Source: Rhodospirillum centenum SW
Lineage (GTDB): Bacteria; Pseudomonadota; Alphaproteobacteria; Azospirillales; Azospirillaceae
Assembly (NCBI RefSeq): GCF_000016185.1
Contig: NC_011420.2
Coordinates: forward strand, 4,271,501-4,335,500
Reading direction: 5' to 3'
DNA length: 64,000 bases
Made by a program: the position numbers and the translations under genes. The stretch's first letter is position 1; each line of letters starts with the position of its first letter. The notes beneath the pieces were generated by a model, which was given only the letters and a program-made list of their open reading frames with translations, had not been told where the DNA came from and made no database searches. Positions 1,497 to 63,568 of the stretch are shown here, in pieces.

Positions 1497-1498
1497 GC

Positions 1499-1546
1499 TC
1501 AGCGGGCCGGACAGGGGGGACGGGAACGCTCCATTCCATTCACCAT
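1499..1546 (-). CDS. Possible 15-residue leader peptide before the FAD protein
   Basis: A short frame begins with ATG at 1546, preceded by AGGAGG with 6 nt spacing (the best ribosome binding site in the neighbourhood). It reads MVNGMERSRPPCPAR and stops with TGA at 1501-1499, two bases before the ATG of the downstream oxidoreductase. This arrangement would permit translational coupling by re-initiation. An alternative is that the Shine-Dalgarno serves the TTG at 1568 or that a frameshift in the assembly separates it from the main frame; the sequence alone cannot decide. Confidence 0.35.
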   Translation of the reverse strand: MVNGMERSRPPCPAR

Positions 1547-1616
1547 GGCCGGCCTCCTGTGATGGCAACGGATTCCAGGGCGGACCTGCCGGGGGCCGGA
1601 CCTGCGGGCGGACGGG

Positions 1617-2618
1617 TCAGATGCCGGCGCCGTCGGTCAGCCCGTAGATATCGAAGGACGCCAGCCCGCGCGCGATCTCCGCGATCGCCTGATTGGCGGC
1701 GGCCAGGGCGCCGCCCATGGTGATGAAACCGTGGACCATGTCGCGGTGGCAGGAATGCAGGACCGGCACGCCGCTCTCCGCCAGCCGTCCGGCGAAGGCC
1801 CGCCCCTCGTCCAGCAGCGGGTCGAACCCGGCCGTGACCAGCACGGTCGGCGGCAGGCCGGACAGATCCTGCGCCCGCAGCGGCGACACACGCCAGTCGA
1901 GCGCGCTCGTCCCCTGGCCCAGATAGTTGCCGACGTACCAGAGATACTGCGCGCGGGTCAGCAGGTAGCCGTCCTCGCGCAGCCGGTGCGAGGGATGGTA
2001 GGCGACCAGATCCAGGCAGGGATAGATCAGGACCTGGCATTTCAGGTGCGGGCCGCCCGCGTCGCGTGCCTTCAGGGCCAGAACGGCCGCCAGATTGCCG
2101 CCAGCACTGTCGCCGGCGACGCCGATCGCCAGCGGGTCGATCGCCAGCAGCCGGGCATTCTCCACCAGCCAGGACAGGGCGGCCCAGGCATCCTCCAGCG
2201 GTCCCGGGAAGGGGTGCTCGGGGGCCAGCCGGTAATCCACGGCGACGATGGTGTGGCCGGTCGCCCGGGCGATCTGGCGGCACAGCGTGTCGTGGCTCTC
2301 CAGATCGCCGAAGGTCCAGCCGCCGCCGTGCAGATAGAGCAGGGCCGGCTGCGGCTTCCAGGTGAAGGAGGGACGGTAGAGGCGGAGCCGGAGCGGTCCG
2401 CCCGGCCCCCGGATCTCCTCGTCGCGCACCGAGGCGAGGTCCGGCGGCTCCGGCCCCAGGGACCGGCGCAGTGCCGAGAAATGGCGCCGGCTGGCGGTCA
2501 GATCGCCGGCCGGCGGGGGACTGTCGGCGAGCAGCCGCACAACCCGCGCGACAGCTTCCGGCAGGTCCGGGGCCACGAAGGTGGCGGGGGACGACGACGG
2601 GTGCAGCGACGTGGCCAT
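1617..2618 (-). CDS. Alpha/beta hydrolase, hormone-sensitive-lipase (HSL) family esterase
   Basis: A 333-residue esterase/lipase likely to hydrolyse short-chain carboxylic esters in the cytoplasm. The oxyanion-hole motif HGGG is at residues 97-100, the nucleophile motif GDSAGG at about 169-174 (Ser171), and the acid and base are Asp266 (in AGFDPLLDEG) and His296 (in DMVHGF). The ATG at 2618 was chosen because AGGAAGG stands about 8 nt upstream and the preceding in-frame residues look like non-coding shadow. The gene is separated by about 180 nt of AT-richer DNA from the response regulator gene upstream and likely has its own promoter. Confidence 0.85.
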   Translation of the reverse strand: MATSLHPSSSPATFVAPDLPEAVARVVRLLADSPPPAGDLTASRRHFSALRRSLGPEPPDLASVRDEEIRGPGGPLRLRLYRPSFTWKPQPALLYLHGGGWTFGDLESHDTLCRQIARATGHTIVAVDYRLAPEHPFPGPLEDAWAALSWLVENARLLAIDPLAIGVAGDSAGGNLAAVLALKARDAGGPHLKCQVLIYPCLDLVAYHPSHRLREDGYLLTRAQYLWYVGNYLGQGTSALDWRVSPLRAQDLSGLPPTVLVTAGFDPLLDEGRAFAGRLAESGVPVLHSCHRDMVHGFITMGGALAAANQAIAEIARGLASFDIYGLTDGAGI

Positions 2619-2695
2619 GCTCGGTCCCTTCCTGCGGACTGGCGCCCCTGTCCCCGTCCGCCGGACGGCGATGGCGGGCGCTGGCAGCACCGATG

Positions 2696-2721
2696 CTGGT
2701 CACGAATTCCTATCGTGTCAA
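2696..2721 (-). promoter_or_regulatory. Candidate -35 element upstream of the esterase gene
   Basis: On the minus strand a perfect TTGACA (2721-2716) is followed 17 nt later by CAGCAT, a weak -10 match. It lies about 80 nt upstream of the esterase start in a short AT-rich gap. Sequence match only. Confidence 0.3.
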
Positions 2722-2742
2722 TGGGATTTAAGGTTCGCGTAT

Positions 2743-2761
2743 ATACAGCAGATTGTTGTAT
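2743..2761. promoter_or_regulatory. ATAC-N11-GTAT dyad, LysR-type operator-like
   Basis: The bases ATAC (2743-2746) and GTAT (2758-2761) are separated by exactly 11 nt, the classical interrupted dyad bound by LysR-type regulators. It sits between the esterase start and the end of the response regulator gene. No LysR gene is adjacent, so the regulator would be encoded elsewhere. A dyad this short can arise by chance. Confidence 0.3.
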
Positions 2762-2800
2762 TTTTATCCTCCCCGTCACTCGCACCGCCGCGGTTTCCAC

Positions 2801-3589
2801 TCAGGCGCGGGTGACGCGGGCGGCGAACAGGTAGCCGGCGTTGCGGACGGTGCGGATCACGGGCGGGGCGTCGGGGTCGCGCTGGATCTTGCGCCGCAGC
2901 CGCGCGATCTGGACATCGACGCTGCGGTCGAAGGCCGGCGTGTTGTGGCCGTGGGTGACGTCCAGCAACTGGTCCCGGCTCAGCACCCGCCCGGCCCGCT
3001 CCACCAGCGCCAGCAGCAGGGTGAACTCGCCCGTCGTCAGATCCTCGTGTCCGCCGTCCGGACGGATCAGCATGTGGCCACGGCTGTCCAGCGTCCAGCC
3101 CTCGAAGCGGTAGACGGGGCCGCCGCCGTCGGGGCCGACGGGGGCCGTTGCCGGCGTGTTCTCCGGGAGTGGCGGGGCTGGGGCCGCCGGCGCAGGCGGG
3201 GCGGGCCGGTCGGGTCCGGCCGGTTCCAGCCGGCGCAGCACGCTTTTCACCCGGGCCAGCAGCTCGCGCGGTTCGAAGGGCTTCGGGACATAGTCGTCCG
3301 CCCCCACCTCCAGGCCGATGATCCGCTCCATCGGGTCGGAGCGGCCGCTCAGGATGATGACCCCGCAGCGCAGGCGCTGGCGCAGTTCCCGCACCACGGC
3401 CAGCCCGTCCATGTCGGGCAGGCCCAGATCGACGATCGCCAGATCGGGCCGGGTGTCCGCCACAACCTCCATCGCCCGGCTGCCGGACGGAGCCTCCTCG
3501 ACCGTGAAACCGGCGCCGGACAGCACCCGGATCACCAGGGCCCGGATGGCATCATCGTCCTCGACCAGCAGAATGCGTGCGATCGACAT
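2801..3589 (-). CDS. OmpR/PhoB-family response regulator
   Basis: A 262-residue DNA-binding response regulator. The N-terminal receiver has the acidic pair in VEDDD, the phosphoacceptor Asp54 (AIVDLGLPDMDG) and the conserved Lys103 in VPKPFEP. A Pro/Ala-rich linker of about 30 residues leads to a C-terminal winged helix (LTTGEFTLLLALVERAG ... RTVRNAGYLF) of the OmpR class. The start at 3589 places the first beta strand directly at the N-terminus; the 13 residues upstream have no such signal. It follows the HD-GYP gene by about 60 nt and may be the last gene of a three-gene response regulator operon. No kinase is on this strand; the divergent hybrid kinase at 5235 is the nearest partner candidate. 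Confidence 0.88.
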   Translation of the reverse strand: MSIARILLVEDDDAIRALVIRVLSGAGFTVEEAPSGSRAMEVVADTRPDLAIVDLGLPDMDGLAVVRELRQRLRCGVIILSGRSDPMERIIGLEVGADDYVPKPFEPRELLARVKSVLRRLEPAGPDRPAPPAPAAPAPPLPENTPATAPVGPDGGGPVYRFEGWTLDSRGHMLIRPDGGHEDLTTGEFTLLLALVERAGRVLSRDQLLDVTHGHNTPAFDRSVDVQIARLRRKIQRDPDAPPVIRTVRNAGYLFAARVTRA

Positions 3590-3652
3590 TCCCGCACCCC
3601 AATCCATCGGGGCAGAGAGTAGCCGCACCGCCGGGACGCATCCAGAGGTACT

Positions 3653-4672
3653 TCAGCGCGGCACGGCTGCCACCTGGGGCAGGCATCTCTCGAACGCCTC
3701 CAGAACCGCCGGGTCGAAGTGCGCCGGTACGGTGCGCGCGTCGCCCACGGTGATGGCGCGCACCGCCTCCTCGTGGGTCAGGGCCGCCTTGTAGGGCCGC
3801 GGCGAGCGCAGCGCGTCGTAGGTGTCGGCCAGGGCCACGATGCGCGCCGGCAGCGGGATCGCGTGGCCGGCGAGCGGCGCATAACCGCTGCCGTCGAAGC
3901 GGTCGTGGTGGTGCAGGGCGATCTGCGCCGCCAGCGTCGCCAGCGGGTGCGCTTCCGAGGCCAGGATGGCGTGCCCGATCACGGTATGCCGGCGGATCAG
4001 CGCGACCTCGCCGGGGTCCAGCGGGCCGGGCTTGCCCAGGATGGCATCGGGCACGCCGATCTTGCCGATGTCGTGCAGGGGGGCAGCGCGGCGGATGTCC
4101 TCCACCAGCGCCGGCGGCAGGCCCATGGCCGCCGCGATCAGCCCGGCATGGACGGCGACACGGCGGCAGTGGGCGCCGGTCTCGTGGTCCTTCCAGTCCA
4201 GCGCCCGCAGCATCCAGCCGATCCCGGCCGAGACCCAGGGGGCGGGCGGCTCCTCCACCGGCCCCGCCCGGGGCGTGCGGCGCAGGTCGGCGTCGATCCG
4301 CTGCGCCAGCTCGGCCAGGGAGAAGGGCTTCGGAATGGTCCCGGCGATCGCCAGTTCCGCTACGAGGCCGCGGTCCACCAGTCCGGGCGCGCCGGACATC
4401 AGATAGTAGCTGGCGGCGGTGCCCAGCCCCTGGCTGCGCGCCATGCTGACGAAGCCCGGCCCGTCCAGTCCCGGCATCAGCACGTCGGCCAGCACGCCGC
4501 GCACGTCCGGGCGGCGGGCCAGCAGCGACAGTCCGGCGAAGCCGTCCGCGGCCGTCAGCACGGAGAAGCCGGCCCGCGACAGCCCGCGGGACAGCAGGGT
4601 GCGGACCTCCGCATCGTCGTCCACCACCACCAGGGTCACAGGCTCCTGCGGAGCGGTCGCGGTCATGCTCAT
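3653..4672 (-). CDS. Receiver-HD-GYP response regulator, probable cyclic di-GMP phosphodiesterase
   Basis: A 339-residue two-domain protein. The receiver has Asp63 (VLADVLMPGLDG) and Lys115 (TIPKPFSL). The C-terminal half is an HD-GYP domain with the HD pair at 200-201 (HDIGKIGVPD), downstream histidines (RRHTVIGH and HHHDRFDGSGY) and the closing LADTYDAL motif. The signature third residue is changed: GYA (263-265) instead of GYP. HD-GYP enzymes degrade cyclic di-GMP; whether the GYA variant is fully active is not known from sequence. Its ATG overlaps the stop of the upstream single-receiver gene (ATGA at 4672-4669), indicating translational coupling. Confidence 0.88.
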   Translation of the reverse strand: MSMTATAPQEPVTLVVVDDDAEVRTLLSRGLSRAGFSVLTAADGFAGLSLLARRPDVRGVLADVLMPGLDGPGFVSMARSQGLGTAASYYLMSGAPGLVDRGLVAELAIAGTIPKPFSLAELAQRIDADLRRTPRAGPVEEPPAPWVSAGIGWMLRALDWKDHETGAHCRRVAVHAGLIAAAMGLPPALVEDIRRAAPLHDIGKIGVPDAILGKPGPLDPGEVALIRRHTVIGHAILASEAHPLATLAAQIALHHHDRFDGSGYAPLAGHAIPLPARIVALADTYDALRSPRPYKAALTHEEAVRAITVGDARTVPAHFDPAVLEAFERCLPQVAAVPR

Positions 4673-5058
4673 GGCTGGCCTCCTGGGGTCCGCGGCTCCA
4701 GGGCCGCGGCAAGGGTGTGGAGAAACTCGTTCCGGTCGAAAGGCCTGGTCAGCACGCCGGCCGCCCCCAGCAGGGTGGCGATGCGGCCGTAGTCGAGGGC
4801 GCTGCCGTCGCCGCCCTGGCCCAGGATGATGACGGGCATGCCGGTCAGGTGCGGATTGACCCGGCGCAGCAGCCCCAGCCCGCAGTCGCCCTTCAGGAAC
4901 AGGTCGGCCACGACCAGATCCACCGGCGTCTCCGCCAGAAGCTGGATGGCATCGTGGCCGTCATCGACGGCCACCACCCGCCAGCCGCTGCCTTCCAGCC
5001 ACCGGCTCACCAGATCGCGGATCTGGCTGTCGTCCTCGGCAATCAGCGCGGTGCCCAT
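4669..5058 (-). CDS. Single-domain response regulator (receiver only)
   Basis: A 129-residue stand-alone receiver domain with the acidic pocket (AEDD, residues 7-10) and phosphoacceptor Asp52 (VVADLFLKGDCG). The normally invariant lysine before the proline is replaced by arginine (LTRPFDRN, Arg105), which could alter phosphorylation-dependent switching. The ATG at 5058 is chosen because it places the first beta strand at the terminus; an upstream TTG gives a non-conserved extension. It is first in the minus-strand operon, overlaps the HD-GYP regulator gene by 4 nt, and is transcribed divergently from the hybrid kinase, so it may act as a phosphorelay intermediate. Confidence 0.82.
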   Translation of the reverse strand: MGTALIAEDDSQIRDLVSRWLEGSGWRVVAVDDGHDAIQLLAETPVDLVVADLFLKGDCGLGLLRRVNPHLTGMPVIILGQGGDGSALDYGRIATLLGAAGVLTRPFDRNEFLHTLAAALEPRTPGGQP

Positions 5059-8225: not shown

Positions 8226-9902
8226 ATGAAAAACCTCAAGATTTCCGTGAAAATCATGGGCGTTGTCGCGCTCATGCTTCTGATCTGTGTGATAATTTCT
8301 GCATTCTCTGGTATGAAACTGCGCTCGATTGATGCGCGCTATGCCAGCCTTATTGCCAGCGAGGTAGAGGCCGCGACCTGGGGGCCCCGTCTGACGGTCA
8401 CGACCATGCGGGTCGGGCGCAACATGTACAAGGCCATCGCCGTGACCGACAAGGGCGAGCGGGCGAAGGTCGCGCAGTCGACGAAGGAGCTGGGCGAGGC
8501 CTTCGCCCAGCGGGTGGCGACGCTGGTCACCATCATGCCGTCGCTGGCGGGGGAGGCGGCCGACCTGCAACGTCTGTTCGACGGCATGATGGGCCATGTT
8601 CCGGCCATCCATGCGGCGCTGGACCGGGGCGATGTGGCCGCCGCCAACAGGCTGATGGCCGAGACATTCGATCCCGCCCTCGACAGGGTGCGGGATGCGA
8701 CCATCGCCCTGACCGATGATCTGAAGCGCCGGATGGCCGAGGCCTCCGCAGCGGCGACCCAGGGGTCCTGGGCGGCAATCCGGCTGCTGGCCGTGATCAC
8801 GCTTGCCGGGGTCGTGGCCGCGGCGGTGGCGGCCCAGATCATCTCCCGGCGCGGCATTGCCGGCCCTCTTCTGGGCCTTGCCGCCGCCATGCGCGATCTG
8901 GCCGCCGGCAATCTCGACCGGACCGTGGACGGCAGCGACCGCGGCGACGAGGTCGGGATGATGGCCAAGGCGCTGGAGGTGTTCAAGCAGGGGGCGCTCG
9001 AACAGCGCCGGCTGGAGGCCGCGCAGCGGCAGGAACAGGCGGCCAGACAGGCCCGGGCCGCCGAGATCGAGCGTCTGGTCCGGCAGTTCGACCAGGCCGT
9101 GGGCGGCGTTCTCGACCGCGTCGGCGGTTCCGCAACGGATCTCAGCCGCACGGCCGACGGCATGGCCACACTGGCGGACCAGACCAACCAGCAGGCCGGT
9201 GCTTCCGCTGCGGCGGCCGAGCAGACCTCGGCCAACGTGCAGACCGTCGCCTCCGCGGCGGAGGAGATGACGGCCTCCATCCAGGAGATCAGCCGCCAGA
9301 TGGCCCGCTCCAACAGCGTCGCCGCGCAGGCGGCGGAGGAGGCGGAGCAGACCATGGCCACGGTCCAGAATCTGGCCGAGGCGGCGGCCCGCATCGGCGA
9401 CGTGGTCCGGTTGATCCAGGACATCGCCAGCCAGACCAACCTGCTGGCGTTGAACGCCACGATCGAGGCAGCGCGGGCCGGCGATGCCGGCAAGGGCTTC
9501 GCCATCGTGGCCAGCGAGGTGAAGGCCCTGGCCAACCAGACGGCCAGCGCGACCGAGGACATCTCAGCCCAGATCTCCAGCGTGCAGAGCGCGACCGACG
9601 GTACGGTCGCCGCCATCGGACGGATCGGGGCGACGATCACCAGCATGAACCAGATCGCCTCTTCCATCGCCTCGGCCATCGAGGAACAGAACGCCACCAC
9701 GTCCGAGATCACCCGCAACGTGCAGCAGGCGGCCCAGGGCACCCAGGAGGTCACGGAGAACATCGTGCAGGTGAAGGAGGCCGCGGTGCAGACGGGGGCT
9801 GCGGCCGGCCGCTTCCTCACCGCGTCCCATGATCTGTCCCGCGACGCCGAGGCCCTGCGCCGTCAGGTCGCCGACTTCCTGACGGCGATCCGGGCGGCAT
9901 AG
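8226..9902 (+). CDS. Methyl-accepting chemotaxis protein
   Basis: A 558-residue chemoreceptor. It starts with a short cytoplasmic stretch and a transmembrane helix at about 9-29, followed by a helical periplasmic domain of four-helix-bundle type, a second transmembrane helix at about 180-204, a HAMP domain ([23 protein letters not shown]) and the long coiled-coil signalling domain with the highly conserved tip [20 protein letters not shown]. It would signal through CheA/CheW, which are not in this window. The start region is AT-richer than the body of the gene, as is the 220-nt gap upstream; the ligand is unknown. Confidence 0.92.
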
Positions 9903-9952
9903 GGCGGCACAGGGGAGGGGACGCGCAGGGGGGAGGGCTGGCCGCCCCGCGC

Positions 9953-10897
9953 TCACCCCGTCGGCAGACGGCCGGTGTGCCGGCGGGCCAGGTCGTCGAT
10001 GATGGCCTGGCCGCGTTCCTGCATGAACTGGCGGAACTGGCTGTGGACCGGCAGCAGCGGCAGGCTGCGGCGGTGGACCACGTACCATGCGCGCATCAGC
10101 GGCAGCCCCTCGATGTCCAGCTCGCGCAGCAGGCCGATGGCCAGCTCAAGCTGGATGGTGTGGCGCGAGATCAGGGCGATGCCGATGCCGGCCATCACCG
10201 CCTGCTTGATCATCTCGTTGCTGCTGGTGGTCATGGCGATCCGCGGGGTCAGACCCTGGCTGCGGAAGAAACCGTCCATCAGCGCCCGGGTGCCCGATCC
10301 CTCCTCGCGCACGATGAACCGCTCGTTCTCCAGGTCGTGCAGCCGCAGCCGCCCGCCCCGGGTCAGCGGATGGCTGGGGGCGGCGATGATGGTCGAGGGG
10401 TGGTTGGCGAAGGCCACCGACTCGACCACCTCGGCCGAGGGCCGGCCCATGATGGCGATGTCCACATCGCCCTTGATGACGGCCGCATGGATCTTGCGGC
10501 GGTTGCCATCCTGCAGGGTGATGGTCACCCCCGGCCGCTCCGCCTGGAAGCGGGACAGCAGGTGCGGCACAATGTACTTGGCCGTGCTGACCAGCCCCAG
10601 CGTCACACTGCCGCCGGTGCTGCCGCGCAGCGCTTCCATCTGCTGGTCGGCGTCGTTCAGTTCCTTCAGGATCACGGTGGCATGGTCCAGCAATGCGGCC
10701 CCGGCATCGGTCAGCACCACGCTGCGGCCGACCCGCTCGAACAGCGGGAATCCGCACAGCCCCTCTATCTGCTTGATCTGGAAGGAGATCGCGCCCGGCG
10801 TCAGGCGGAACTGCTCGGCCACCCGGGCGAACGACAGGGTGCGCGCGGCCGCCGCGAAGATCTGGAGCTGCCGGATCGTGGCGTTGCGGATGGACAT
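9953..10897 (-). CDS. cbbR: LysR-type regulator CbbR
   Basis: A 314-residue LysR-family transcription regulator. The N-terminal helix-turn-helix is clear (TLSFARVAEQFRLTPGAISFQIKQIEG, residues about 20-46), followed by an effector-binding periplasmic-binding-protein-like domain. It is transcribed divergently from the RuBisCO large-subunit gene, the standard position of cbbR, and the intergenic region holds a palindrome with the LysR T-N11-A spacing. CbbR activates cbb operons in response to metabolites such as RuBP, NADPH or ATP depending on species. The assignment rests on fold plus position; the palindrome 13 nt upstream of its own start suggests autoregulation. Confidence 0.9.
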   Translation of the reverse strand: MSIRNATIRQLQIFAAAARTLSFARVAEQFRLTPGAISFQIKQIEGLCGFPLFERVGRSVVLTDAGAALLDHATVILKELNDADQQMEALRGSTGGSVTLGLVSTAKYIVPHLLSRFQAERPGVTITLQDGNRRKIHAAVIKGDVDIAIMGRPSAEVVESVAFANHPSTIIAAPSHPLTRGGRLRLHDLENERFIVREEGSGTRALMDGFFRSQGLTPRIAMTTSSNEMIKQAVMAGIGIALISRHTIQLELAIGLLRELDIEGLPLMRAWYVVHRRSLPLLPVHSQFRQFMQERGQAIIDDLARRHTGRLPTG

Positions 10898-10910
10898 GGC
10901 CGGCTCGGAA

Positions 10911-10934
10911 ATCGTTTAGGGATCCCTCAACGAT
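10911..10934. promoter_or_regulatory. Near-perfect 24-bp palindrome, probable CbbR operator
   Basis: The outer arms ATCGTT (10911-10916) and AACGAT (10929-10934) are exact inverse complements and flank a central GGGATCCC; only one base pair of the whole dyad mismatches. T10917 and A10929 match the LysR T-N11-A rule. The centre lies about 65 nt upstream of the transcription start predicted from the promoter at 10953-10981, which is the typical position of the LysR recognition site. Confidence 0.7.
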
Positions 10935-10952
10935 ACCGCCAGTCCATTTGAA

Positions 10953-12490
<1,538 letters not shown>

Positions 12491-12521
12491 TCGCGGCGGA
12501 TTGCAGAAGAGGACCAGACCC

Positions 12522-12962
12522 ATGCGGTTGACCCAAGGCCAATTCTCCTTCCTGCCGGACCTGACCGACGCGGAGATCTCCAAGCAGGTGCAGTACGCCC
12601 TTGAGCAGGGCTGGGCGGTGGCGGTCGAGTACACGGACGATCCGCACCCGCGCAACTACTACTGGCACATGTGGGGCACGCCCATGTTCGACCTCCGCGA
12701 CGCCAAGGGTGTCGTGATGGAGATCGACGCCTGCCGCAAGGCGCACCCGGACATGTATGTCAAGGTGCTGGCCTTCGACAGCTCGGAAGGGTTCGAGTCC
12801 GTGCGCATGTCGTTCATCGTCAACCGTCCCGCCGAGGAGCCCGGCTTCGAGCTGGTGCGCGACGAGGGCGCGGGCCGGCAGGTCCACTACACGATCCGCA
12901 GCTACGCCACGTCCAGCCCCGCGGGGCGGCGTTATCAGGCGGGGACGGGAAATGGCCGATAG
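12522..12962 (+). CDS. cbbS: RuBisCO small subunit, red type
   Basis: A 146-residue small subunit of form I RuBisCO; eight copies cap the CbbL octamer. It begins [16 protein letters not shown] and has the C-terminal extension characteristic of red-type small subunits ([17 protein letters not shown]). AGAGGA precedes the ATG at 12522. The gap to cbbL is 31 nt, and the 3' end overlaps the start of the epimerase gene by 11 nt, so the two are probably translationally coupled. Confidence 0.96.
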
Positions 12963-13683
12963 GCCCCCGCGGCGTCATCGTCTCGCCCCCTCCATCCTCT
13001 CGGCCGACTTCGCGCGGCTGGGGGAGGAGGTGCAGCGGGTCGTGGAGGCCGGGTGCGACGTCATCCATTTTGACGTGATGGACAACCATTACGTGCCCAA
13101 CCTCACGATCGGCCCGCTGGTCTGCGAGGCGATCCGGCCCTGCACCAAGGCGCCCATCGACGTGCACCTGATGGTGCGCCCGGTGGACGCCCTGGTCCCC
13201 ATGTTCGCCAAGGCCGGCGCCGACATCATCAGCTTCCATCCGGAAGCATCCGATCATGTGGACCGCACCCTGGCGCTGATCCGCGACCAGGGTTGCCGCG
13301 CCGGGTTGGTTCTCAACCCGGCGACGCCGCTCCATCATCTCGACCATGTGATGGACCGGCTGGACCTGATCCTGGTGATGTCGGTCAATCCCGGCTTCGG
13401 CGGGCAGTCCTTCATTCCGTCGGCGCTCGACAAGATCGCCGCCATCCGCCGCCGCATCGACGCCCACACCGAACGCACGGGGGCGGAGATCTGGCTGGAG
13501 GTGGATGGCGGCATCAAGCCGTCCAACATCCGCGCGGTGGCGGATGCCGGGGCGGATACCTTCGTCGCCGGGTCCGCCATCTTCGGCGCCCGCGATGCCG
13601 ACGGCGGCTACCATGAGGTGGTGCGCGCCCTGCGCGCCGCGCTGGAGGAGGCGCCGGCCAGCACCGGCGGGAGGTCGGCATGA
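12952..13683 (+). CDS. cbbE: Ribulose-phosphate 3-epimerase
   Basis: A 243-residue TIM-barrel enzyme interconverting ribulose 5-phosphate and xylulose 5-phosphate in RuBP regeneration. Family motifs are [17 protein letters not shown] (about 11-27), [37 protein letters not shown]-type segment, and [11 protein letters not shown]. The ATG at 12952 overlaps the end of cbbS, with GGGGACGGGAA just upstream. Its stop overlaps the ATG of cbbX (ATGA at 13680-13683). Placement of the epimerase gene between the small-subunit and activase genes is noteworthy. Confidence 0.95.
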
Positions 13684-16749: not shown

Positions 16750-18813
16750 ATGACCGCGACCGCAGAGGCCGGCGCACAGGAAGCCCTTGCCCCGACGATG
16801 CCCGACCCCCTGTCCCCGGCGGAGCGTCGGCACCTTGCCAACGCGCTGCGGGTGCTGGCGATCGACGCGGTGGAGGCGGCCAAGTCCGGCCACCCCGGCA
16901 TGCCCATGGGCATGGCCGACATCGCCGAGGCGCTGTGGCGCCGTCACCTGCGCCACAACCCGGCCGATCCGGCCTGGCCGGACCGTGACCGCTTCGTGCT
17001 GTCGAACGGCCACGGCTCGATGCTGCTCTACGGTCTGCTGCACCTCACCGGCTACGACCTGCCGATCGAGGAGCTGAAGCGGTTCCGCCAGCTCCACTCC
17101 AAGACGCCGGGCCACCCCGAATACGGCCTCACGCCGGGCGTGGAGACGACGACCGGCCCGCTCGGCCAGGGCATCGCCAACGCCGTCGGCATGGCGCTGG
17201 CCGAGCGCCTGCTGGCGGCCGAGTTCAACCGGCCGGACCACACCATCGTCGATCACCGCACCTTCTGCTTCGTCGGCGACGGCTGCCTGATGGAGGGTCT
17301 CAGCCACGAGGTCTGCTCGCTCGCGGGCACGCTGGGGCTGGAGAAGCTGGTCGTGCTCTATGACGACAACGGCATCTCCATCGACGGCCATGTCGTCGGC
17401 TGGTTCGCCGACGACACGCCGAAGCGGTTCGAGGCCTATGGCTGGCGCGTCATCCGCGACGTGGACGGGCACGACGCGGCGGCGCTGGACCGGGCGCTGG
17501 CCGAGGCGGTGACACCCTGCGGCAAGCCCACCCTGATCTGCTGCAAGACCGTCATCGGCTGGGGCAGCCCGGCCAAGGCCGGCACCCACGATGTCCACGG
17601 CGCGCCCCTGGGGGCCGCCGAGTCCGCCGCCGCCAAGGCGGAGATGGGCTGGACCGCGGCCCCGTTCGAGATCCCCGAGGACGTGCGCGCCGGCTGGGAC
17701 GCGCGCGGCCGCGGCGCCGCCCTGGAGGGCGCGTGGCAGGAGCGGTTCCGCCGTTATGCCGAGGCGCACCCCGATCTGGCGGCCGAGTTCACCCGCCGCG
17801 TCTCGGGCGAGCTGCCGGCGGACTTCGCCAGGGCGGCCGACGCCTGGATCGCGGAGACGGCGGCCCGCACCGACACCGTCGCCACCCGCAAGGCCTCGCA
17901 GCAGGCGATCCAGGCCCTGGCCGGCCTGCTGCCGGAGATGCTGGGCGGCTCGGCCGACCTGACCGGCTCCAACCTCACCGACTGGAAGGGTTCCGCCTCG
18001 GTCCGCATGACCGGCGGCGGCAGCTACGTGCATTACGGCGTGCGCGAGTTCGGCATGACCGCGATGATGAACGGCGTGGCGCTGCATGGTGGCTACCTGC
18101 CGTTCGGCGGCACTTTCCTGGTCTTCTCCGACTATGCCCGCAACGGCCTGCGGCTGGCCGCCCTGATGGGGCTGCGCGTCGTCCATGTGCTGACGCACGA
18201 CAGCATCGGCCTGGGCGAGGACGGGCCGACCCACCAGCCGATCGAGCACGCCGCCAGCCTGCGGCTGATGCCCAACATGGATGTCTGGCGGCCCTGCGAT
18301 GCGCTGGAGACGGCGGTCGCGTGGCGTACCGCCGTGGAGCGCCACACCGGCCCGAGCTGCCTGCTGCTGTCCCGGCAGGGGCTGCCGGCGCAGAGCGGCC
18401 CCGGCCGGACCGACGGCGCCGCCCGCGGCGGCTATGTGCTGGCGGAGGCCGATGGCGGCAGGCCGGACGTGGTGCTGATCGCCACCGGCTCCGAGGTGCA
18501 GGTGGTGATGGAGGCCAGGACGGTGCTGGCCGGGCGCGGCATCGCGGCGCGGGTCGTCTCCATGCCCTGCTGCGAGCTGTTCGACCGCCAGGACGAGGCG
18601 TGGAAGGCGTCCGTGCTGCCCGCCGGCGTGCCGCGCATGGCCGTGGAGGCCGGGGCCCCCGACCTCTGGCGCAAGTATGTCGGCCTGGACGGCGACGTGG
18701 TGGGCATCGCGCGCTTCGGCGAATCCGCCCCGGCCGGCGACCTCTACCGCTTCTTCGGCCTCACGGCCGATGCCGTGGCGCAGCGCACGGCGCGGCTGCT
18801 GGGCCGCGTCTGA
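16750..18813 (+). CDS. cbbT: Transketolase
   Basis: A 687-residue thiamine diphosphate enzyme moving two-carbon units between sugar phosphates in RuBP regeneration. The TPP/Mg motif [13 protein letters not shown] is near residue 177, with [17 protein letters not shown] near the start and a C-terminal transketolase domain. GGAGGA lies 7 nt before the ATG at 16750, which decides the start over an upstream in-frame GTG/ATG extension. The gene follows cbbP by 55 nt. Confidence 0.96.
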
Positions 18814-18843
18814 CCCGGGACTGGCAACGACGGCGCGACCGGC

Positions 18844-18867
18844 GCCGACACAACGGCCGACACAACG
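18844..18867. repeat. Perfect 12-bp tandem duplication before cbbA
   Basis: GCCGACACAACG occurs twice head to tail (18844-18855 and 18856-18867) in the 74-nt gap between cbbT and cbbA, ending about 20 nt upstream of the aldolase start codon. It looks like a replication-slippage product with no obvious role. Confidence 0.8.
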
Positions 18868-18887
18868 ACAGAATCTGGAGGAATCCG

Positions 18888-19943
18888 ATGGCCTTGATCT
18901 CCCTCCGTCAGCTCCTCGACCATGCCGCCGAGCATGGCTACGGGGTGCCGGCGTTCAACATCAACAACATGGAACAGATCCACGCGATCATGCAGGCGGC
19001 CGACGCCTGCGACAGCCCGGTGATCCTCCAGGCCTCCGCCGGTGCCCGCAAGTACGCCGGCGAGCCGTTCCTGCGCCGCATGGTCGAGGCGGCGGTGGAG
19101 ATGTGGCCGCACATTCCGATCTGCATGCACCAGGACCATGGCGGCAGCCCGGCCGTCTGCCAGCAGTCGATCCGCTCCGGCTTCACCAGCGTGATGATGG
19201 ACGGTTCGCTGAAGGAGGACATGAAGACCCCCTCCAGCTACGAGTACAATGTCGCGGTCACGGCCAAGGTGGTGGAGTTCGCCCACGCTGTCGGCGTTTC
19301 GGTCGAAGGCGAGCTGGGCTGCCTCGGCTCGCTGGAGAGCGGTCAGGCGGGTGAGGAGGACGGCTCCGGCGCCGAGGGCGTGCTCTCGCACGACCAGCTC
19401 CTGACCGATCCGGAGCAGGCGGCTCAGTTCGTCGCCGCCACCGGCGTGGACGCGCTGGCCATCGCCATCGGCACCAGCCACGGCGCCTACAAGTTCACCC
19501 GCAAGCCGTCGGGCGACATCCTCGCCATCGGCCGGGTGAAGGAGATCCACGAGCGCATCCCGAACACCCACCTCGTGATGCACGGCTCCTCCTCCGTGCC
19601 GCAGGACTGGCTGGAGATCATCCGGGAGAACGGCGGGGCCATCAAGGAGACCTACGGCGTGCCGGTGGAGGAGATCCAGCAGGGCATCCGCTACGGCGTG
19701 CGCAAGGTCAACATCGACACCGACGTGCGTCTGGTCATGACCGGCGCCATCCGCCGTCTGATGGCGAAGAAGCCGGACGAGTTCGACCCGCGCAAGTTCC
19801 TGGCCGAGGCGACCAAGGCCGCCAAGGCGCTCTGCCAGGAGCGTTTCGAGCAGTTCGGCACGGCCGGTCAGGCCTCGCGCATCAAGCCGCTGCCGCTGGA
19901 GAAGATGGCCGCCTTCTACGCCGCCGGGCGCGCTGCGGCGTGA
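18888..19943 (+). CDS. cbbA: Class II fructose-bisphosphate aldolase
   Basis: A 351-residue zinc-dependent aldolase condensing glyceraldehyde 3-phosphate and dihydroxyacetone phosphate (and probably erythrose 4-phosphate). The zinc and catalytic segment [23 protein letters not shown], and the phosphate-binding GTSHGAYKF and NIDTDVR motifs are all visible. GGAGG stands 6 nt before the ATG at 18888. Its stop overlaps a possible GTG start of the next gene, consistent with tight operon packing. Confidence 0.96.
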
Positions 19944-19957
19944 GCGGGAGCACGGCG

Positions 19958-20662
19958 ATGACTTCCCGTCCGGAGCCGACCGTCCAGGCCTTCCCGGCCC
20001 TGGTCTTCGATCTGGACGGGACCCTGCTGGACAGCGTTCCCGACATCGGGCAGGCGCTGAACCGCACGCTGATGGATCTGGGCCGGCCGACCGTGTCGCC
20101 GGCCCAGGTGCGGCGCTTCGTCGGCGATGGCGTGCGCCGGCTGGTGGAGCGCGGGCTGGAGGCGACCGGCGGCCTGCCCGACGCGGGGGCGCAGGACGCC
20201 GCCCTCGACCGCTTCATGGCCATCTATGGCGCCATCCCCGCCGATCCGGCCTGCATCTTCCCCGGGGTGCTGGACACCCTGCGGGCGCTGGCCGCGGCGG
20301 GGCACGGCCTTGCCGTCTGCACCAACAAGCCCGAGGCGATCACCCGCGACCTGCTGCGCGACCTCGGCCTGCTGGATCTGCTGGCCGCCGTCGTCGGCGG
20401 CGACACGCTGCCCCAGCGCAAGCCGGCGCCGGAGCCGCTGCTGGCGGCTATCGCACGCATGGGGGCATCGCCGGCCGGGGCCCTGATGGTGGGCGACAGC
20501 GAGAACGATGTCGCCACGGCGCGCGCCGCCGGGGTGCCCGTCGTCGCCGTCACCTACGGCTATTCCCGCGTGCCGGTCCCCGAGCTGGGGGCCGACCATG
20601 TGATCGACCGATTCGATGCGTTGCCCGGCGCGATCGCCTCCCTGGCGTCGCGGCGGGCCTGA
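19958..20662 (+). CDS. cbbZ: Phosphoglycolate phosphatase (HAD family)
   Basis: A 234-residue HAD hydrolase with motif I FDLDGTLLDS, motif II in VCTNKPE, Lys in QRKPAPEP and motif IV GDSENDVATA, the pattern of Gph/CbbZ. It would dephosphorylate 2-phosphoglycolate formed by the oxygenase reaction of RuBisCO. The ATG at 19958 has GGGAG 7 nt upstream; a GTG at 19940 overlapping the cbbA stop is an alternative start adding six residues. The position in the cbb operon supports the function; HAD substrate assignment from sequence alone is otherwise uncertain. Confidence 0.85.
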   Translation: MTSRPEPTVQAFPALVFDLDGTLLDSVPDIGQALNRTLMDLGRPTVSPAQVRRFVGDGVRRLVERGLEATGGLPDAGAQDAALDRFMAIYGAIPADPACIFPGVLDTLRALAAAGHGLAVCTNKPEAITRDLLRDLGLLDLLAAVVGGDTLPQRKPAPEPLLAAIARMGASPAGALMVGDSENDVATARAAGVPVVAVTYGYSRVPVPELGADHVIDRFDALPGAIASLASRRA

Positions 20663-59180: not shown

Positions 59181-59267
59181 GCGGGCGGAGGCCGAGCTAT
59201 GTCCGGGACGGCGGCGGCGCCGCAGCGCGCCGCACCCGTTCCGGAACGGAGAGGAACGAGGGGAAGA

Positions 59268-59891
59268 ATGGCGATTTTGCGGCGCCCCGCAATGCCCGTG
59301 CTGGCCTTGGCGGCGATTCTCTTGCTGGCGGCCTGCGGCGAACAGGATCAGGGCGGCTCCCGGACCGCGGGAGAGACCACGGGTCAGGCTGCGGGACAGG
59401 CGGCGGCAGGAGGGGGCACGCTGGCGGAGTCGCTGGCCCCCTTCACGGTGACCGGCACGCCGCAGCCGGCGCCGGACATCGCCTTCACCGACCGCGACGG
59501 CCGTCCGGTCACGCTCGCCGCTTTCCGCGGCAAGGTGGTGCTGCTGAACCTCTGGGCCGTCTGGTGCCCGCCCTGCGTCAAGGAGATGCCGTCGCTCGAC
59601 CGGCTCCAGGCGGCGCTGGGCGGGGACGACTTCCAGGTCGTGGCGCTGTCGCAGGACCGTGGCGGCGCGGCCCAGGTGCTGCCCTTCTACGAGAAGGCGG
59701 GGATCGCCCACCTGCCGGTCTATCTCGACCCGCAGACCGCGGCGATGGCGGCGCTCAAGGCCCGCGGCCTGCCCACCACCTACCTGATCGACCGCGAGGG
59801 ACGCCTGCTCGGCCGGCTGGAAGGGGAAGCCGCCTGGGACGCCCCGGCCGCCCTGGACCTGATCCGCCACGTCATCGCGGGGCGCTACTGA
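59268..59891 (+). CDS. tlpA: TlpA-like thioredoxin-fold lipoprotein
   Basis: A 207-residue thiol-disulfide oxidoreductase. The N-terminal signal peptide ends in a lipobox (LLLAACGEQ), a low-complexity linker follows, and the AhpC/TSA-like thioredoxin domain carries the redox motif WAVWCPPC ([21 protein letters not shown]) and [12 protein letters not shown]. TlpA proteins act in the periplasm, for example in cytochrome maturation. GAGGGGAAGA precedes the ATG. It is divergent from argH and is the last gene of typical composition before the AT-rich island. Confidence 0.91.
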
Positions 59892-60069
59892 CCGGCGAGA
59901 TTCGACCGTTCAGGATGTCCTGCGTCCAGATTGCGTGGGATCGAAATGCCTTGCTTCTTGGCAGACAACTGAATTGAGCTTGCGGGGTTGCAGAGCGCGA
60001 CCTTGTAACAGCGTATTGGATTCAAGTCTCTTTCGTGGCATCATATGGACGGTGGGATCGGAGGTTTAA

Positions 60070-62361
60070 ATGAACGACTCAGACGACGAGAATTCCGTAT
60101 TCGAAGCTGAGGTGCGCCGTATCGCTAGAGAACTTTTTCCAAAGGCGCGGATTAATGGCCCGGTTATAGTGGATGGTCGTGAGCGCGACTGTGTTTTTAA
60201 CGACGGTGAGGTAATGCATGTTATTGAAGCAACAGTATCACGCAGAAAAGATAAAGCGACAAAGGACTTAGAAAAGAGCGCCGAACTTGTGAAGTCCCTC
60301 AGGAGGCAACACCAGGACGTGAACTTTAAAATATGGTTCATTACAAAGAGGGAGCCGAGCGCTGATCAAAGTGCTGTCGGATCGGAGATAAAAAAGCTTG
60401 CGAAATGCCCGGTCGATGTTTGCAGCTTTCGGACATTTTCGGCAAAGCTGGTCGATGCTTCAAGTTATTTGAGTTTGCGAGAAAATCATCCTTTTGGTAG
60501 TGTGAGAAATCCGGCTGACGACGCGGACTACGCGGTGCCTAGAGAAGATTATGTCCAAATAGATCTTTTAAATTTCCGCGACAAATCATTAGTTAATGTC
60601 GCTTATCTTCCTGAGCGCATGTCGGAATCGCCAGGAGTTTATCTGTTGGTGGGAGATTTCGGGGCCGGAAAAAGCATGACAATGAGGTATATGTATGATA
60701 TTCTGGCAGATAAATACATGTCGGGATCGACGACAACATTTCCAGTATATTTGAATCTGCGTGATCATTTTGGGCAGAGCAACCCCAGTGAAGCCCTGCT
60801 CCGGCATGGCAATGAAATTGGCTTTGCGGCGCCAAATCAGTTGGTGGCTGCCTGGAAGGCGGGTCACTGCCATGTCTTTTTAGATGGCTTTGATGAGCTG
60901 TCATCCACGAGGCTAGTTCGCGGAGTGGGTGGTCTTAGAGCGGCTCGGCGGGAAGCGATGCGTCTAGTACATGCTTTTGTATCGCATCATCCGCGTGACA
61001 CATCAATATTTGTTGGTGGTAGGCAGCACTATTTTGATAGTTTGGAGGAATTGGAAAAAGCTCTTGGTTTGCCCTCTAATTTTGTGCACTTGACGCTGAA
61101 TGAGTTTACTCATGAGCAGGTGACAAAATTTCTTAAAGGTAAAGGATTTAATGAACGGGTTCCCAATTGGCTCCCCTCGCGGCCTCTGCTGCTCGGGTAC
61201 TTGGCTATTAAAGGCGTTCTGGCGCGTCACGATCCCGACATTAGTTCTCTTGCCCGAGAAGAAGGTTGGGACTATCTCGTAGATCGGATATGTGAACGTG
61301 AGGCGAGGCAGATTGATCCAATTAGTATTGACCCTCATGCAGTAAGAGAATTTGTTGAGCGCTTGGCGAGTTGGGCCCGTAGGACTAATTCTGGGCGGGG
61401 GCCCGTTCACCTAAATAATATATATTCCATATTCGAAGGTGTTTTCTCTATGCCGCCTGATGAAAAGGCATCGACGTTGATATTTAGAATGCCTGGTCTT
61501 ACCTCGGCATCTGGTCAGGAGGACGCACGAGAGTTCATTGATGATGATTATGTTGATGCTTGCCGGAGTGGTGATATTATTCGGTTTATAGAGTCTCCCC
61601 ACGATCCGAAATCAGAGCTTCTTGATGAATCAACCATAAACATGGGAGATCTTGGTGCAAGTTTATCTGCTTATAAGCTGTCTGGGGCGACTGCTAAAAA
61701 GCTTTCGGCCGCTCTCGATTCGGCTGCCAGAAGAAATGCACCCTGTTTATCCTTCGATGTCTTGCGAGTAATGCAGCAGATAAACGCGTCGTATGTGGGG
61801 CCAAATATAAAAATATCAGATGGATTCTTTAGTGAATACCAAATTAGCGCAAGTCCAGATTTGTCAAAAGTGACATTTTCAGAATGCTATTTTAATGTAG
61901 TTGAGATTGATGAGGGCGCGAATGCTGGTCCTGAATTCGTTAAATGCCAAATAGAGAAGGTTGTTGGCTGTATAGGACAAAAAGATCTGCCTAGTTTTGT
62001 TGCCTCTTCGGCGGATGGTATATCAAAGTTTGAGGATGAGGCCCAGACAAATGCAGATATTCTAGACTTGCCTATGCCAATGAGCACAAAAGTATTAATG
62101 ACAATCTTAAGAAAGCTTTTTGTTCAGGCTGGAAGAGGGCGGCGCGAGAATGCCTTTTACCGGGGCCTCGACGGTAGATCTAAGGTCTATGTTCCGGAAA
62201 TTCTCCAGATAATAGAGAAGATGGAGTTTGCGTCTCCGAGTAAAAATAGTGGACCGGTTGTTTGGTTCCCAAACCGTAGCTTAGCTCGTGATGCGCATGA
62301 AATTTTGCAGGCACCTCTTCATTCAAATCATCCGCTGGCTGCCCAGGTTCGAATACTTTGA
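60070..62361 (+). CDS. NACHT-domain STAND NTPase with nuclease-like N-terminus; candidate anti-phage protein
   Basis: A 763-residue protein. Residues 10-130 look like a PD-(D/E)XK nuclease of the Mrr-related type: GRERDCVF (D40), HVIEATVSRRKDK (E53) then Lys-rich helix, IWFITKREP. The NACHT domain follows: Walker A GDFGAGKS (195-202), Walker B VFLDGFDE (269-276), and the sensor-like GGRQHYFDS. A helical region and a beta-rich C-terminal part (about 575-635: GPNIKISDGFFSEYQ ... VTFSECYFNVVEI) with pentapeptide-like character would be the sensing part. NACHT-nuclease proteins are known bacterial NLR-like defence proteins. Codon usage is AT-rich, unlike all neighbours. GGAGG is 5 nt before the ATG. 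Confidence 0.85.
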   Translation: MNDSDDENSVFEAEVRRIARELFPKARINGPVIVDGRERDCVFNDGEVMHVIEATVSRRKDKATKDLEKSAELVKSLRRQHQDVNFKIWFITKREPSADQSAVGSEIKKLAKCPVDVCSFRTFSAKLVDASSYLSLRENHPFGSVRNPADDADYAVPREDYVQIDLLNFRDKSLVNVAYLPERMSESPGVYLLVGDFGAGKSMTMRYMYDILADKYMSGSTTTFPVYLNLRDHFGQSNPSEALLRHGNEIGFAAPNQLVAAWKAGHCHVFLDGFDELSSTRLVRGVGGLRAARREAMRLVHAFVSHHPRDTSIFVGGRQHYFDSLEELEKALGLPSNFVHLTLNEFTHEQVTKFLKGKGFNERVPNWLPSRPLLLGYLAIKGVLARHDPDISSLAREEGWDYLVDRICEREARQIDPISIDPHAVREFVERLASWARRTNSGRGPVHLNNIYSIFEGVFSMPPDEKASTLIFRMPGLTSASGQEDAREFIDDDYVDACRSGDIIRFIESPHDPKSELLDESTINMGDLGASLSAYKLSGATAKKLSAALDSAARRNAPCLSFDVLRVMQQINASYVGPNIKISDGFFSEYQISASPDLSKVTFSECYFNVVEIDEGANAGPEFVKCQIEKVVGCIGQKDLPSFVASSADGISKFEDEAQTNADILDLPMPMSTKVLMTILRKLFVQAGRGRRENAFYRGLDGRSKVYVPEILQIIEKMEFASPSKNSGPVVWFPNRSLARDAHEILQAPLHSNHPLAAQVRIL

Positions 62362-62374
62362 AGTTGCTTCAAAG
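62356..62374. terminator. Inverted repeat over the NACHT gene stop codon
   Basis: CTTTGAAG-TTG-CTTCAAAG is a perfect 8-bp inverted repeat with a 3-nt loop and includes the TGA stop at 62359-62361. It lacks a following T-run; it could still end transcription of the island gene. Confidence 0.4.
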
Positions 62375-62383
62375 ACCGCACCT

Positions 62384-62593
62384 GCTCATATCACGTTCGA
62401 GGCCATGGTGGCCGAGGGGCTGATCCGGGTGGACAGCGAGTTCCAGTGGGACAACACCTGGGACGAGCCCTACGCCTACGGCGTCTACCACATCGACTTC
62501 GGCCAGGGCCGGGTGGTGGAACTGCTGGGCGGCGACTTCGGCGCGGGCGGCCTCACGGCCGCCAACCTGACCTTCTTCGGGACCTTCGCTTAG
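62384..62593 (+). pseudogene. 3' remnant of a GC-rich gene, cut by the island
   Basis: Directly after the AT-rich island an open frame of normal GC composition runs to TAG at 62591-62593 (about 69 residues from AHITFEAMVAEGLIR...). Its codon usage is host-like, yet no start codon with ribosome binding site precedes it; the first in-frame ATG is at 62405. It appears to be the end of a gene whose 5' part was removed or lies elsewhere. A short intact 62-residue gene from 62405 is the alternative. I do not recognise the family. Confidence 0.5.
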
Positions 62594-62615: not shown

Positions 62616-63488
62616 TTACCGCGTCGGCCGCGGCACGTCGCCGGAATAGTCGTAGAAGCCGCGCCCGACCTTGCGGCCCAGCCAGCCGGCCTCGACATAC
62701 TTCACCAGCAGCGGGCAGGGGCGGTACTTGCTGTCCGCCAGCCCCTCATAGAGCACCTGCATGATGGACAGGCAGGTATCCAGCCCGATGAAGTCGGCCA
62801 GCTCCAGCGGGCCCATCGGGTGGTTCGCCCCCAGCTTCATGGCGGTGTCGATGCCCTCGACCGTGCCGACGCCCTCGTACAGGGTGTAGACGGCCTCGTT
62901 GATCATCGGCAGCAGGATGCGGTTGACGATGAAGGCCGGGAAATCCTCCGCGATGGCGGCGGTCTTGCCCAGCTTCGCCGTCAGCTCCTTGATCGCCTGG
63001 AACGTCTCCTCGTCCGTAGCGATGCCGCGGATGATCTCGACGAGCTGCATCACCGGCACCGGGTTCATGAAGTGCATGCCGATGAATTTGTGCGGCCGGT
63101 CGGTGCTGGCGGCCAGCCGGGTGATGGAGATCGACGAGGTGTTGGTGGCGACCAGCGCGTCCGCCTTCAGGTGCGGCACGAGCTGCTTGAAGATGGCGCG
63201 CTTGACGTCCTCGCTCTCCGTCGCCGCCTCGATCACCAGATCGCAGTCGGCCAGCGCCGACAGATCGGTCGCGGTGGCGATGCGGGCCAGTGCGGCGTCC
63301 TTCGCGGCCTCGGCGATCTTGCCCTTGGCGACCTGCCGCTCCAGGTTCCGGCCGATGCCGCCGACCGCCTTGGTGAGCTGGTCCTCGCGCACATCCACCA
63401 GCTTCACCTGGAAGCCGGCCACCGCGCTGACATGGGCGATGCCGCTGCCCATCTGGCCGGCACCGATGATACCGATCTTCTCGATCAT
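62616..63488 (-). CDS. hbd: 3-hydroxybutyryl-CoA dehydrogenase
   Basis: A 290-residue NAD(P)-dependent dehydrogenase of butyrate/polyhydroxybutyrate and fatty acid metabolism. The N-terminus has IGIIGAGQMGSGIAHVSAVAGF, followed by VIEAATESEDVKRAIFKQL, NTSSISITRLA, the catalytic His-Met-Asn in GMHFMNPVPVMQLVEII, and DTAMKLGANHPMGPLELADFIG. The ATG at 63488 is used over an upstream start because of the Rossmann motif position. It lies downstream of etfA on the same strand. Confidence 0.95.
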   Translation of the reverse strand: MIEKIGIIGAGQMGSGIAHVSAVAGFQVKLVDVREDQLTKAVGGIGRNLERQVAKGKIAEAAKDAALARIATATDLSALADCDLVIEAATESEDVKRAIFKQLVPHLKADALVATNTSSISITRLAASTDRPHKFIGMHFMNPVPVMQLVEIIRGIATDEETFQAIKELTAKLGKTAAIAEDFPAFIVNRILLPMINEAVYTLYEGVGTVEGIDTAMKLGANHPMGPLELADFIGLDTCLSIMQVLYEGLADSKYRPCPLLVKYVEAGWLGRKVGRGFYDYSGDVPRPTR

Positions 63489-63568
63489 GCCGCTACCCTG
63501 ACGCCGCAATGGAAACGAAGGCGCGCCGGGCCCGCCATGGTGGAAGCGGGGGACGGGACCCGGACGCG

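What the first reader, a model, noticed from the sequence alone, without database searches (positions are those of the whole stretch)
60070..62361. NACHT NTPase with nuclease-like N-terminus on an AT-rich island: candidate defence system
The gene has Walker A GDFGAGKS and Walker B FLDGFDE of a NACHT/STAND ATPase, a PD-(D/E)XK-like N-terminal region with D40 and E53, and a beta-rich C-terminus. The composition is AT-rich within a GC-rich chromosome and no other gene accompanies it. Bacterial NACHT proteins with nuclease effectors are known anti-phage proteins; this single-gene architecture with E-x-T in place of E-x-K in the presumed active site may be a variant or new subtype.
Basis: partly seen in the sequence, partly recalled or inferred. 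Interest (0 to 1): 0.8.

Follow-up and report, generated by a model that had tools for sequence, protein, structure and literature searches.

The report
Solitary phage-borne NACHT–nuclease immune protein
A foreign, AT-rich single gene in this bacterial chromosome encodes an immune-receptor-like protein with a DNA-cutting-enzyme fold whose usual catalytic lysine is replaced by threonine in the whole family; it travels on phages, plasmids and chromosomes of at least ten phyla and is most likely a one-gene anti-phage system.

Summary
Window 60070-62361 is one intact 763-aa gene, 46% GC in about 73% GC DNA. It sits alone between tlpA and hbdA, which are adjacent in many Azospirillaceae relatives (empty site).

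Structure prediction gives three parts: an N-terminal restriction-endonuclease fold (FokI, N.BspD6I, Can2/Card1), a NACHT STAND ATPase (NLRC4 Z 21, NLRP3), and a C-terminal beta-solenoid plus winged helix. I found about 65 full-length relatives in at least ten phyla, including phage Haddon, 12 IMG/VR contigs and an Erwinia plasmid. Nearly all are lone genes poorer in GC than their flanks, with no recurring partner.

Three acidic nuclease residues (E12, D40, E53) are almost invariant, but the catalytic lysine is T or S in all 63 members that can be read. Homologous NACHT proteins with canonical E/D-x-K align at the same columns. So threonine is a family-wide substitution, accompanied by a conserved K-x3-D-x2-K helix.

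Best reading: a one-gene STAND defence protein that oligomerises when its variable C-terminus senses phage, and activates a variant nuclease. Catalysis and defence are untested. It is a new variant of a known kind, absent from PADLOC (2023 release) and NCBIfam; the nearest characterised protein is bNACHT25.

The parts
60070..62361 (+). REase-NACHT gene, 763 aa, intact
   Evidence: relatives; family alignment of 64 rows
60052..60069 (+). ribosome-binding region (GGAGG) of the gene
   Evidence: sequence; read by eye
60070..60489 (+). residues 1-140: PD-(D/E)XK/REase-fold domain, alpha-beta-beta-beta-alpha-beta-alpha-beta
   Evidence: AF2 model of the domain alone pLDDT 89, pTM 0.81; FokI Z 11.0 over 124 aa, rmsd 2.8; profile match to canonical REase-NACHT N-termini, 96% probability
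60103..60105 (+). codon of E12, invariant acidic residue of the first helix
   Evidence: 61 of 61 readable members
60187..60189 (+). codon of D40, metal-site aspartate
   Evidence: 62 of 62 readable members
60226..60234 (+). codons of E53-A54-T55, the E-x-T that replaces E-x-K
   Evidence: E 59 of 63 (M in 4 Burkholderiales), T 61 and S 2 of 63
60253..60276 (+). codons of K62-x3-D66-x2-K69, conserved stripe on the following helix
   Evidence: K62 61, D66 58, K69 60 (R in 3) of 63; the whole motif E-x-[TS]-x6-K-x3-D-x2-[KR] in 54 of 64
60520..61149 (+). residues 151-360: NACHT NTPase core with Walker A 195-202 and Walker B 270-276
   Evidence: Pfam PF05729; G198, K201, S202, D272, D275, E276, R318 invariant in 64 of 64; NLRC4/NLRP3 structural match
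61150..61689 (+). residues 361-540: winged-helix/helical part of the STAND module
   Evidence: AF2 model and NLRC4 alignment over model residues 127-576
61690..62079 (+). residues 541-670: most variable part, containing a beta-solenoid of about 21-residue turns (580-654); presumed sensor
   Evidence: mean pairwise identity 22% against 35-38% for REase and NACHT; weak pentapeptide-repeat matches
62080..62358 (+). residues 671-763: winged-helix-like tail
   Evidence: AF2 secondary structure; R691 invariant in 64 of 64

Best explanation
It is a single-gene STAND (NACHT) anti-phage protein carried as mobile cargo. The C-terminal beta-solenoid/winged-helix part senses a sign of phage infection; ADP-to-ATP exchange in the NACHT module drives ring- or filament-like oligomerisation; this brings the N-terminal REase-fold domains together and switches on metal-dependent cleavage of DNA (host and phage), giving abortive infection. 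The active site uses E12, D40 and E53 to hold metal, and the lysine usually at E-x-K is replaced by T55, with K62 and/or K69 of the next helix the likely substitutes. Shown here: gene, domain architecture (by prediction), invariant residues, purifying selection, horizontal mobility, carriage by phages, absence of a partner gene. Inferred: oligomerisation, nuclease activity, substituted lysine, sensing, defence.
For: REase fold of residues 1-140 and profile homology (96% probability, P 1e-9) to N-termini of NACHT proteins with canonical [ED]-x-K, with E12, D40, E53 and T55 falling on FE, D, E/D and K. E12, D40, E53 and all Walker residues nearly invariant across at least 10 phyla. dN/dS 0.04-0.13 in the REase domain, as low as in the rest. 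The effector and NTPase parts are conserved and the C-terminus is the most variable, the pattern expected of effector-switch-sensor. Best structural relatives of the whole model are NLRC4, NLRP3 and Avs4. Carried by phage Haddon inside a mosaic region between non-structural and lysis genes, by 12 IMG/VR contigs including a P2-like one with terminase, portal and replication gene, and by a plasmid. Gene GC below flank in 68 of 69 loci, mean 14 points lower. No recurrent companion in 73 loci. Empty site in close relatives. Precedent: bNACHT25 and bNACHT32 have N-terminal PD-(D/E)XK DNases needed for defence (PMC12169576).
Against: No defence or nuclease assay exists. The E-x-K lysine is missing in every readable member, and four Burkholderiales also lack E53. 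No enrichment in defence islands over the far-flank control could be shown. The sequence link to a Pfam 'inactive REase' family is weak but present.
Confidence: 0.68

Rival explanations
1. The N-terminal domain is a pseudo-nuclease (inactive REase) that binds nucleic acid or a partner; the STAND switch then acts by another route (DNA binding through the winged helix, recruitment of a host enzyme, or membrane or translation effects).
For: T or S instead of the catalytic lysine in 63 of 63 members; Pfam PF22722 'NACHT-associated inactive Restriction Endonuclease 1' touches two members at E about 0.02-0.04, one of them over residues 84-117 only; E53 is M in four Burkholderiales members that are otherwise intact.
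Against: E12, D40 and E53, which serve only a metal site, are kept at 61/61, 62/62 and 59/63. A conserved K-x3-D-x2-K helix accompanies the loss, of which D66 and K69 are not seen in the canonical relatives inspected. No other effector domain is present.
Confidence: 0.22
2. A STAND transcription regulator or other regulatory NTPase (MalT-like) with no defence role.
For: Winged-helix tail; STAND proteins such as MalT are regulators (one search lists the MalT complex 8bob among structural matches).
Against: Sporadic, foreign, single-gene distribution with no constant neighbour to regulate; carriage by phages; nuclease-fold N-terminus.
Confidence: 0.05
3. A phage-benefit gene of another kind (superinfection exclusion of relatives, or counter-defence) that was left behind in chromosomes.
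For: Present in phage Haddon and in prophage-like contigs; absent from the other Pseudomonas phages that share its flanks.
Against: Most genome copies stand alone without phage genes. The architecture is that of a sensor-effector. This reading overlaps with the defence reading: prophage-borne defence is superinfection immunity.
Confidence: 0.05

Closest known systems
bNACHT25 / bNACHT32 (bNACHT clade 6; Kibby et al.; PMC12169576)
   Same: Single protein, N-terminal PD-(D/E)XK DNase effector with an essential aspartate (D48), central NACHT module, C-terminal sensor; abortive DNA degradation.
   Different: Clade 6 carries an NCH1 domain; Pfam scans list none here. This family has T for the catalytic lysine and a beta-solenoid/winged-helix C-terminus. 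I could not align the bNACHT25 sequence itself.
Canonical REase-NACHT proteins such as WP_167377947.1 (Rhizobium gallicum) and QND17926.1 (R. leguminosarum)
   Same: Homologous REase N-terminus (96% HHalign probability), NACHT, and in two of them weak matches to the C-terminal solenoid profile.
   Different: They have [ED]-x-K; this family has E-x-T. NACHT identity is low, and they fall outside the family by BLAST.
Avs4 (AVAST type 4; PDB 8dgf)
   Same: Best Foldseek hit of the whole model (E 4e-9) and second of the isolated N-terminus: nuclease plus STAND ATPase in one chain.
   Different: Avs4 is a 1,534-residue chain in 8dgf that binds the phage portal; here 763 residues with an unrelated-looking C-terminus.
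PF22722 NA-iREase1, NACHT-associated inactive restriction endonuclease 1
   Same: Position N-terminal to NACHT; REase fold.
   Different: Only two of 21 members match, below the curated cut-off, one of them shown to match only at the C-terminal end of the domain; here the acidic residues are conserved.
DS-8 (NF053861; PMC13092281)
   Same: Single-protein NACHT defence; weak match in 6 of 21 members, presumably through the shared NACHT domain.
   Different: DS-8's effector is a metallophosphatase, not a REase fold.

Membership tests
NACHT/STAND NTPases (bNACHT) | Walker A GxxGxGKS and NACHT Walker B D-G-x-D-E | tested here: met
   G198, G200, K201, S202, D272, G273, D275, E276 in 64 of 64; Pfam NACHT matches 21 of 21 members
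NACHT/STAND NTPases (bNACHT) | NACHT + winged-helix + helical domain fold as in NLRs | tested here: met
   NLRC4 Z 21.4, rmsd 5.2, 373 aligned, model residues 127-576
NACHT/STAND NTPases (bNACHT) | Tripartite effector-NACHT-sensor layout | tested here: met
   Conserved N-terminus and NACHT, variable C-terminus; that the C-terminus senses is inferred
PD-(D/E)XK nuclease superfamily | Core REase fold | tested here: met
   (FokI Z 11.0, N.BspD6I 10.8, Can2 10.4); predicted model, not solved
PD-(D/E)XK nuclease superfamily | Metal-binding D and E | tested here: met
   D40 62/62, E53 59/63
PD-(D/E)XK nuclease superfamily | Catalytic lysine at E-x-K | tested here: not met
   T 61, S 2 of 63; K in five homologous NACHT proteins at the aligned column
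PD-(D/E)XK nuclease superfamily | Metal-dependent phosphodiester cleavage | not testable with these tools
   needs protein
bNACHT clade 6 (bNACHT25) | NCH1 domain C-terminal to NACHT | tested here: inconclusive
   Not listed by Pfam scans of 21 members, but only the 25 commonest families are shown and the presence of the model in the library was not verified
Avs4 | Long (about 1,500 aa) chain with large C-terminal portal-binding domain | tested here: not met
   763 aa; C-terminal 220 aa is a beta-solenoid plus winged helix
PF22722 NA-iREase1 | Score above the family's curated cut-off | tested here: inconclusive
   14.5 bits against 27 in one member when the N-terminus is scanned alone; not reported for the window protein
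Catalogued defence systems (PADLOC-DB 2.0.0, NCBIfam 20.0) | Match to a model at a meaningful score | tested here: not met
   Window protein: mad8 E 0.035 only in PADLOC, nothing relevant in NCBIfam
Anti-phage system | Protection from phage | not testable with these tools
   needs plaque assays

The most novel reading that the evidence does not exclude
A previously uncatalogued, cross-phylum family of one-gene STAND immune proteins whose restriction-endonuclease effector works with a rewired active site (E-D-E-x-T plus a K-x3-D-x2-K helix) in place of the E-x-K lysine.
Probability: 0.45. Interest if true: 0.65.

Novelty: new variant of a known kind. Interest (0 to 1): 0.55.

Why it matters
If true, it adds a compact (about 760 aa) self-contained NLR-like immune protein that moves as a single gene between phages, plasmids and chromosomes of distant phyla and is missing from the 2023 PADLOC models and from NCBIfam. 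The invariant threonine in place of the catalytic lysine makes a clean, directly testable question about how restriction-type nucleases can work, or be reused as pseudo-enzymes, inside NLR-like switches.

Tried and rejected
Defence-island association: PADLOC scan of 117 near neighbours gave RM, PARIS-like, C3a187, Cas2e and MADS-type matches at a few loci (140 families listed), but 117 far-flank genes of the same loci also gave Cas type I-E, GajA and Pycsar-like matches (67 families). I claim no enrichment. The longest-ORF gene calls used there are crude in GC-rich DNA. One search identified two of the near loci: a type IIG RM gene in L094 and a NERD-UvrD gene in L095.

Partner gene: none in more than 3 of 73 loci.

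att-like repeats, integrase or tRNA at the insertion: only chance-length repeats, no tRNA in the window; one relative, L049, has tRNA-Ala nearby.

Promoter/terminator scan: not above chance.

Profile search of the N-terminus against PDB sequences found no nuclease, so the fold claim rests on structure prediction and on profile homology to canonical REase-NACHT proteins.

A match of L036 (another E-x-K NACHT) to the N-terminal profile failed. First scans with the single sequence found nothing; alignments were needed. E. coli genomes: no DNA-level match, which does not exclude protein-level relatives. A paper on phage Haddon says nothing that I could find about this gene. Bacterial-NACHT catalogues (Kibby 2023) and the PD-(D/E)XK survey of 2012 are not in the library, so I could not check whether this clade was numbered there.

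Full report
WHAT IS THERE. Window 60070-62361 (+) is an intact 763-codon gene with a good ribosome-binding site. The genome is a complete 4.36-Mb alphaproteobacterial chromosome, and the gene is the only relative of itself and the only NACHT hit found in it. Its third codon position is 42% GC against 89-94% in the two flanking genes. The neighbours are tlpA (59199-59891, +) and hbdA (62616-63509, -). In several members of the same family tlpA and hbdA are adjacent, about 50-90 bp apart (L058, L059, L063, L065, L070, L075, L080), and in others the same spot holds different cargo (L054, L055, L082). So the gene is an insertion into a variable intergenic site. I found no integrase, tRNA or target repeat.

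ARCHITECTURE. An AlphaFold2 model on 19 family sequences (mean pLDDT 86, pTM 0.72) and one of residues 1-145 alone (pLDDT 89, pTM 0.81) give: (i) residues 1-140, helix-three strands-helix-strand-helix-strand, the restriction-endonuclease topology. VIA-align scores are 11.0 with FokI (124 residues, 2.8 A), 10.8 with N.BspD6I, 10.4 with Can2, about 10 with EndoMS, 9.4 with Card1; Foldseek lists N.BspD6I, Avs4 and Card1 first, with E about 1e-3. (ii) Residues 127-576 are an NLR-type NACHT module: NLRC4 Z 21.4 over 373 residues, NLRP3 17.1; whole-model Foldseek best hit Avs4, E 4e-9. (iii) Residues 580-654 contain strands that repeat every 21 residues, a solenoid-like pattern; weak pentapeptide-repeat matches in a few members and in the C-terminal profile support this loosely. 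(iv) The tail 671-763 looks like a winged helix.

FAMILY. Searches by protein and by alignment found full-length relatives in phage Haddon (34% identity), one Erwinia plasmid (25%), 12 IMG/VR contigs, about 56 loci in GTDB species genomes and a few per cent or less of sampled alphaproteobacteria (3 of 99 close relatives counting itself; 5 full-length of 385 in the class). The tree of 64 full-length rows spans Pseudomonadota, Actinomycetota, Acidobacteriota, Chloroflexota, Gemmatimonadota, Bacteroidota, Planctomycetota, Spirochaetota, Myxococcota and Nitrospirota, with phyla intermixed. The closest relative is only 48% identical.

MOBILE CARGO. In 68 of 69 loci with enough flank the gene is poorer in GC than its surroundings, on average by 14 points. 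Among 761 neighbouring ORFs no family recurs in more than three of 73 loci. Neighbours are housekeeping genes such as gyrA/parC, urocanase and HSP90. In phage Haddon it lies in a mosaic block next to the lysis genes; 104 other Pseudomonas phages share parts of the flanks, yet Haddon is the only record in the phage collection that has the gene. In L021 it sits between the portal gene and a P2-like replication gene. Several copies are broken (L084, L129, L131, L132, L133, L137), as expected for a costly accessory gene. All this is what one sees for defence cargo, but association with other defence genes was not shown to exceed a control.

THE ACTIVE SITE. Across the family E12 is kept in 61/61, D40 in 62/62, E53 in 59/63 (four related Burkholderiales have M), and position 55, where E-x-K nucleases have lysine, is T in 61 and S in 2 of 63. 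K62, D66 and K69 on the next helix are kept in 61, 58 and 60 (R in 3) of 63. Five more distant NACHT proteins (L005, L155-L158) have E/D-x-K. Their N-termini align to this family's profile at 96% probability (P 1e-9, 121 columns), with E12, D40, E53 and T55 on FE, D, E/D and K in the members that carry all of these (L005 alone). So the domain is a true member of the REase fold in which lysine was replaced at the base of the family. The REase domain is as conserved as the NACHT core (35% against 38% mean pairwise identity) and under purifying selection (dN/dS 0.04-0.13), whereas residues 541-670 are the least conserved (22%).

MECHANISM. By analogy with bNACHT25/32, whose PD-(D/E)XK DNases degrade DNA on infection and need the active-site aspartate (PMC12169576), the most likely mechanism is: variable C-terminus senses infection, NACHT exchanges nucleotide and oligomerises, the paired REase domains cut DNA, and the cell dies or stalls. 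The three acidic residues argue that metal binding is retained; K62 or K69 could supply the missing lysine. This last step is inference; I could not measure distances in the model. The main rival is a pseudo-nuclease, suggested by the missing lysine and by a weak match to Pfam's 'inactive' REase family.

NOVELTY. No PADLOC (2023) or NCBIfam model covers the protein. NACHT defence proteins with PD-(D/E)XK effectors are known. What is new is the family, its lysine-less active site and its single-gene cross-phylum mobility. I could not check the published bNACHT clade list or recent preprints, so the clade may already bear a number there.

Noticed in passing
62361-62593: A GC-rich stretch right after the NACHT gene encodes about 80 aa (ending ...LTFFGTFA, stop at 62591-62593) with no match in any fetched locus; possibly a fragment of another gene brought in or cut by the insertion.
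   Followed up: partly
L054, L055, L082 between tlpA and hbdA: The same intergenic spot holds other, unrelated insertions in relatives (in L054 apparently an ion-channel-like gene, read by eye), so it is a variable site.
   Followed up: partly
L125, L126, L127, L128: Four Burkholderiales members have M in place of the otherwise invariant E53 (LIMATT) but keep D40, K62, D66, K69 and the Walker motifs: a natural test set for loss of nuclease activity.
   Followed up: partly
L024 (IMG/VR contig 2617270734_000004), ORFs at about 1-4950, 9563-13345, 17351-20278: Three large ORFs (1650, 1261, 976 aa) on one 20-kb phage-labelled contig each match the NACHT profile.
   Followed up: no
L155 1-1352 and 1513-4245 (Rhizobium gallicum plasmid): Two neighbouring genes both annotated 'restriction endonuclease'; the second is a 910-aa REase-NACHT with canonical D-x-K.
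   Followed up: no
L096-L120 (Actinomycetota loci): The PADLOC scans of near and far genes list Cas2e and Cas3e/7e/8e/11e, one gene each, probably one type I-E CRISPR-Cas locus near one of the homologues; which locus was not identified.
   Followed up: no
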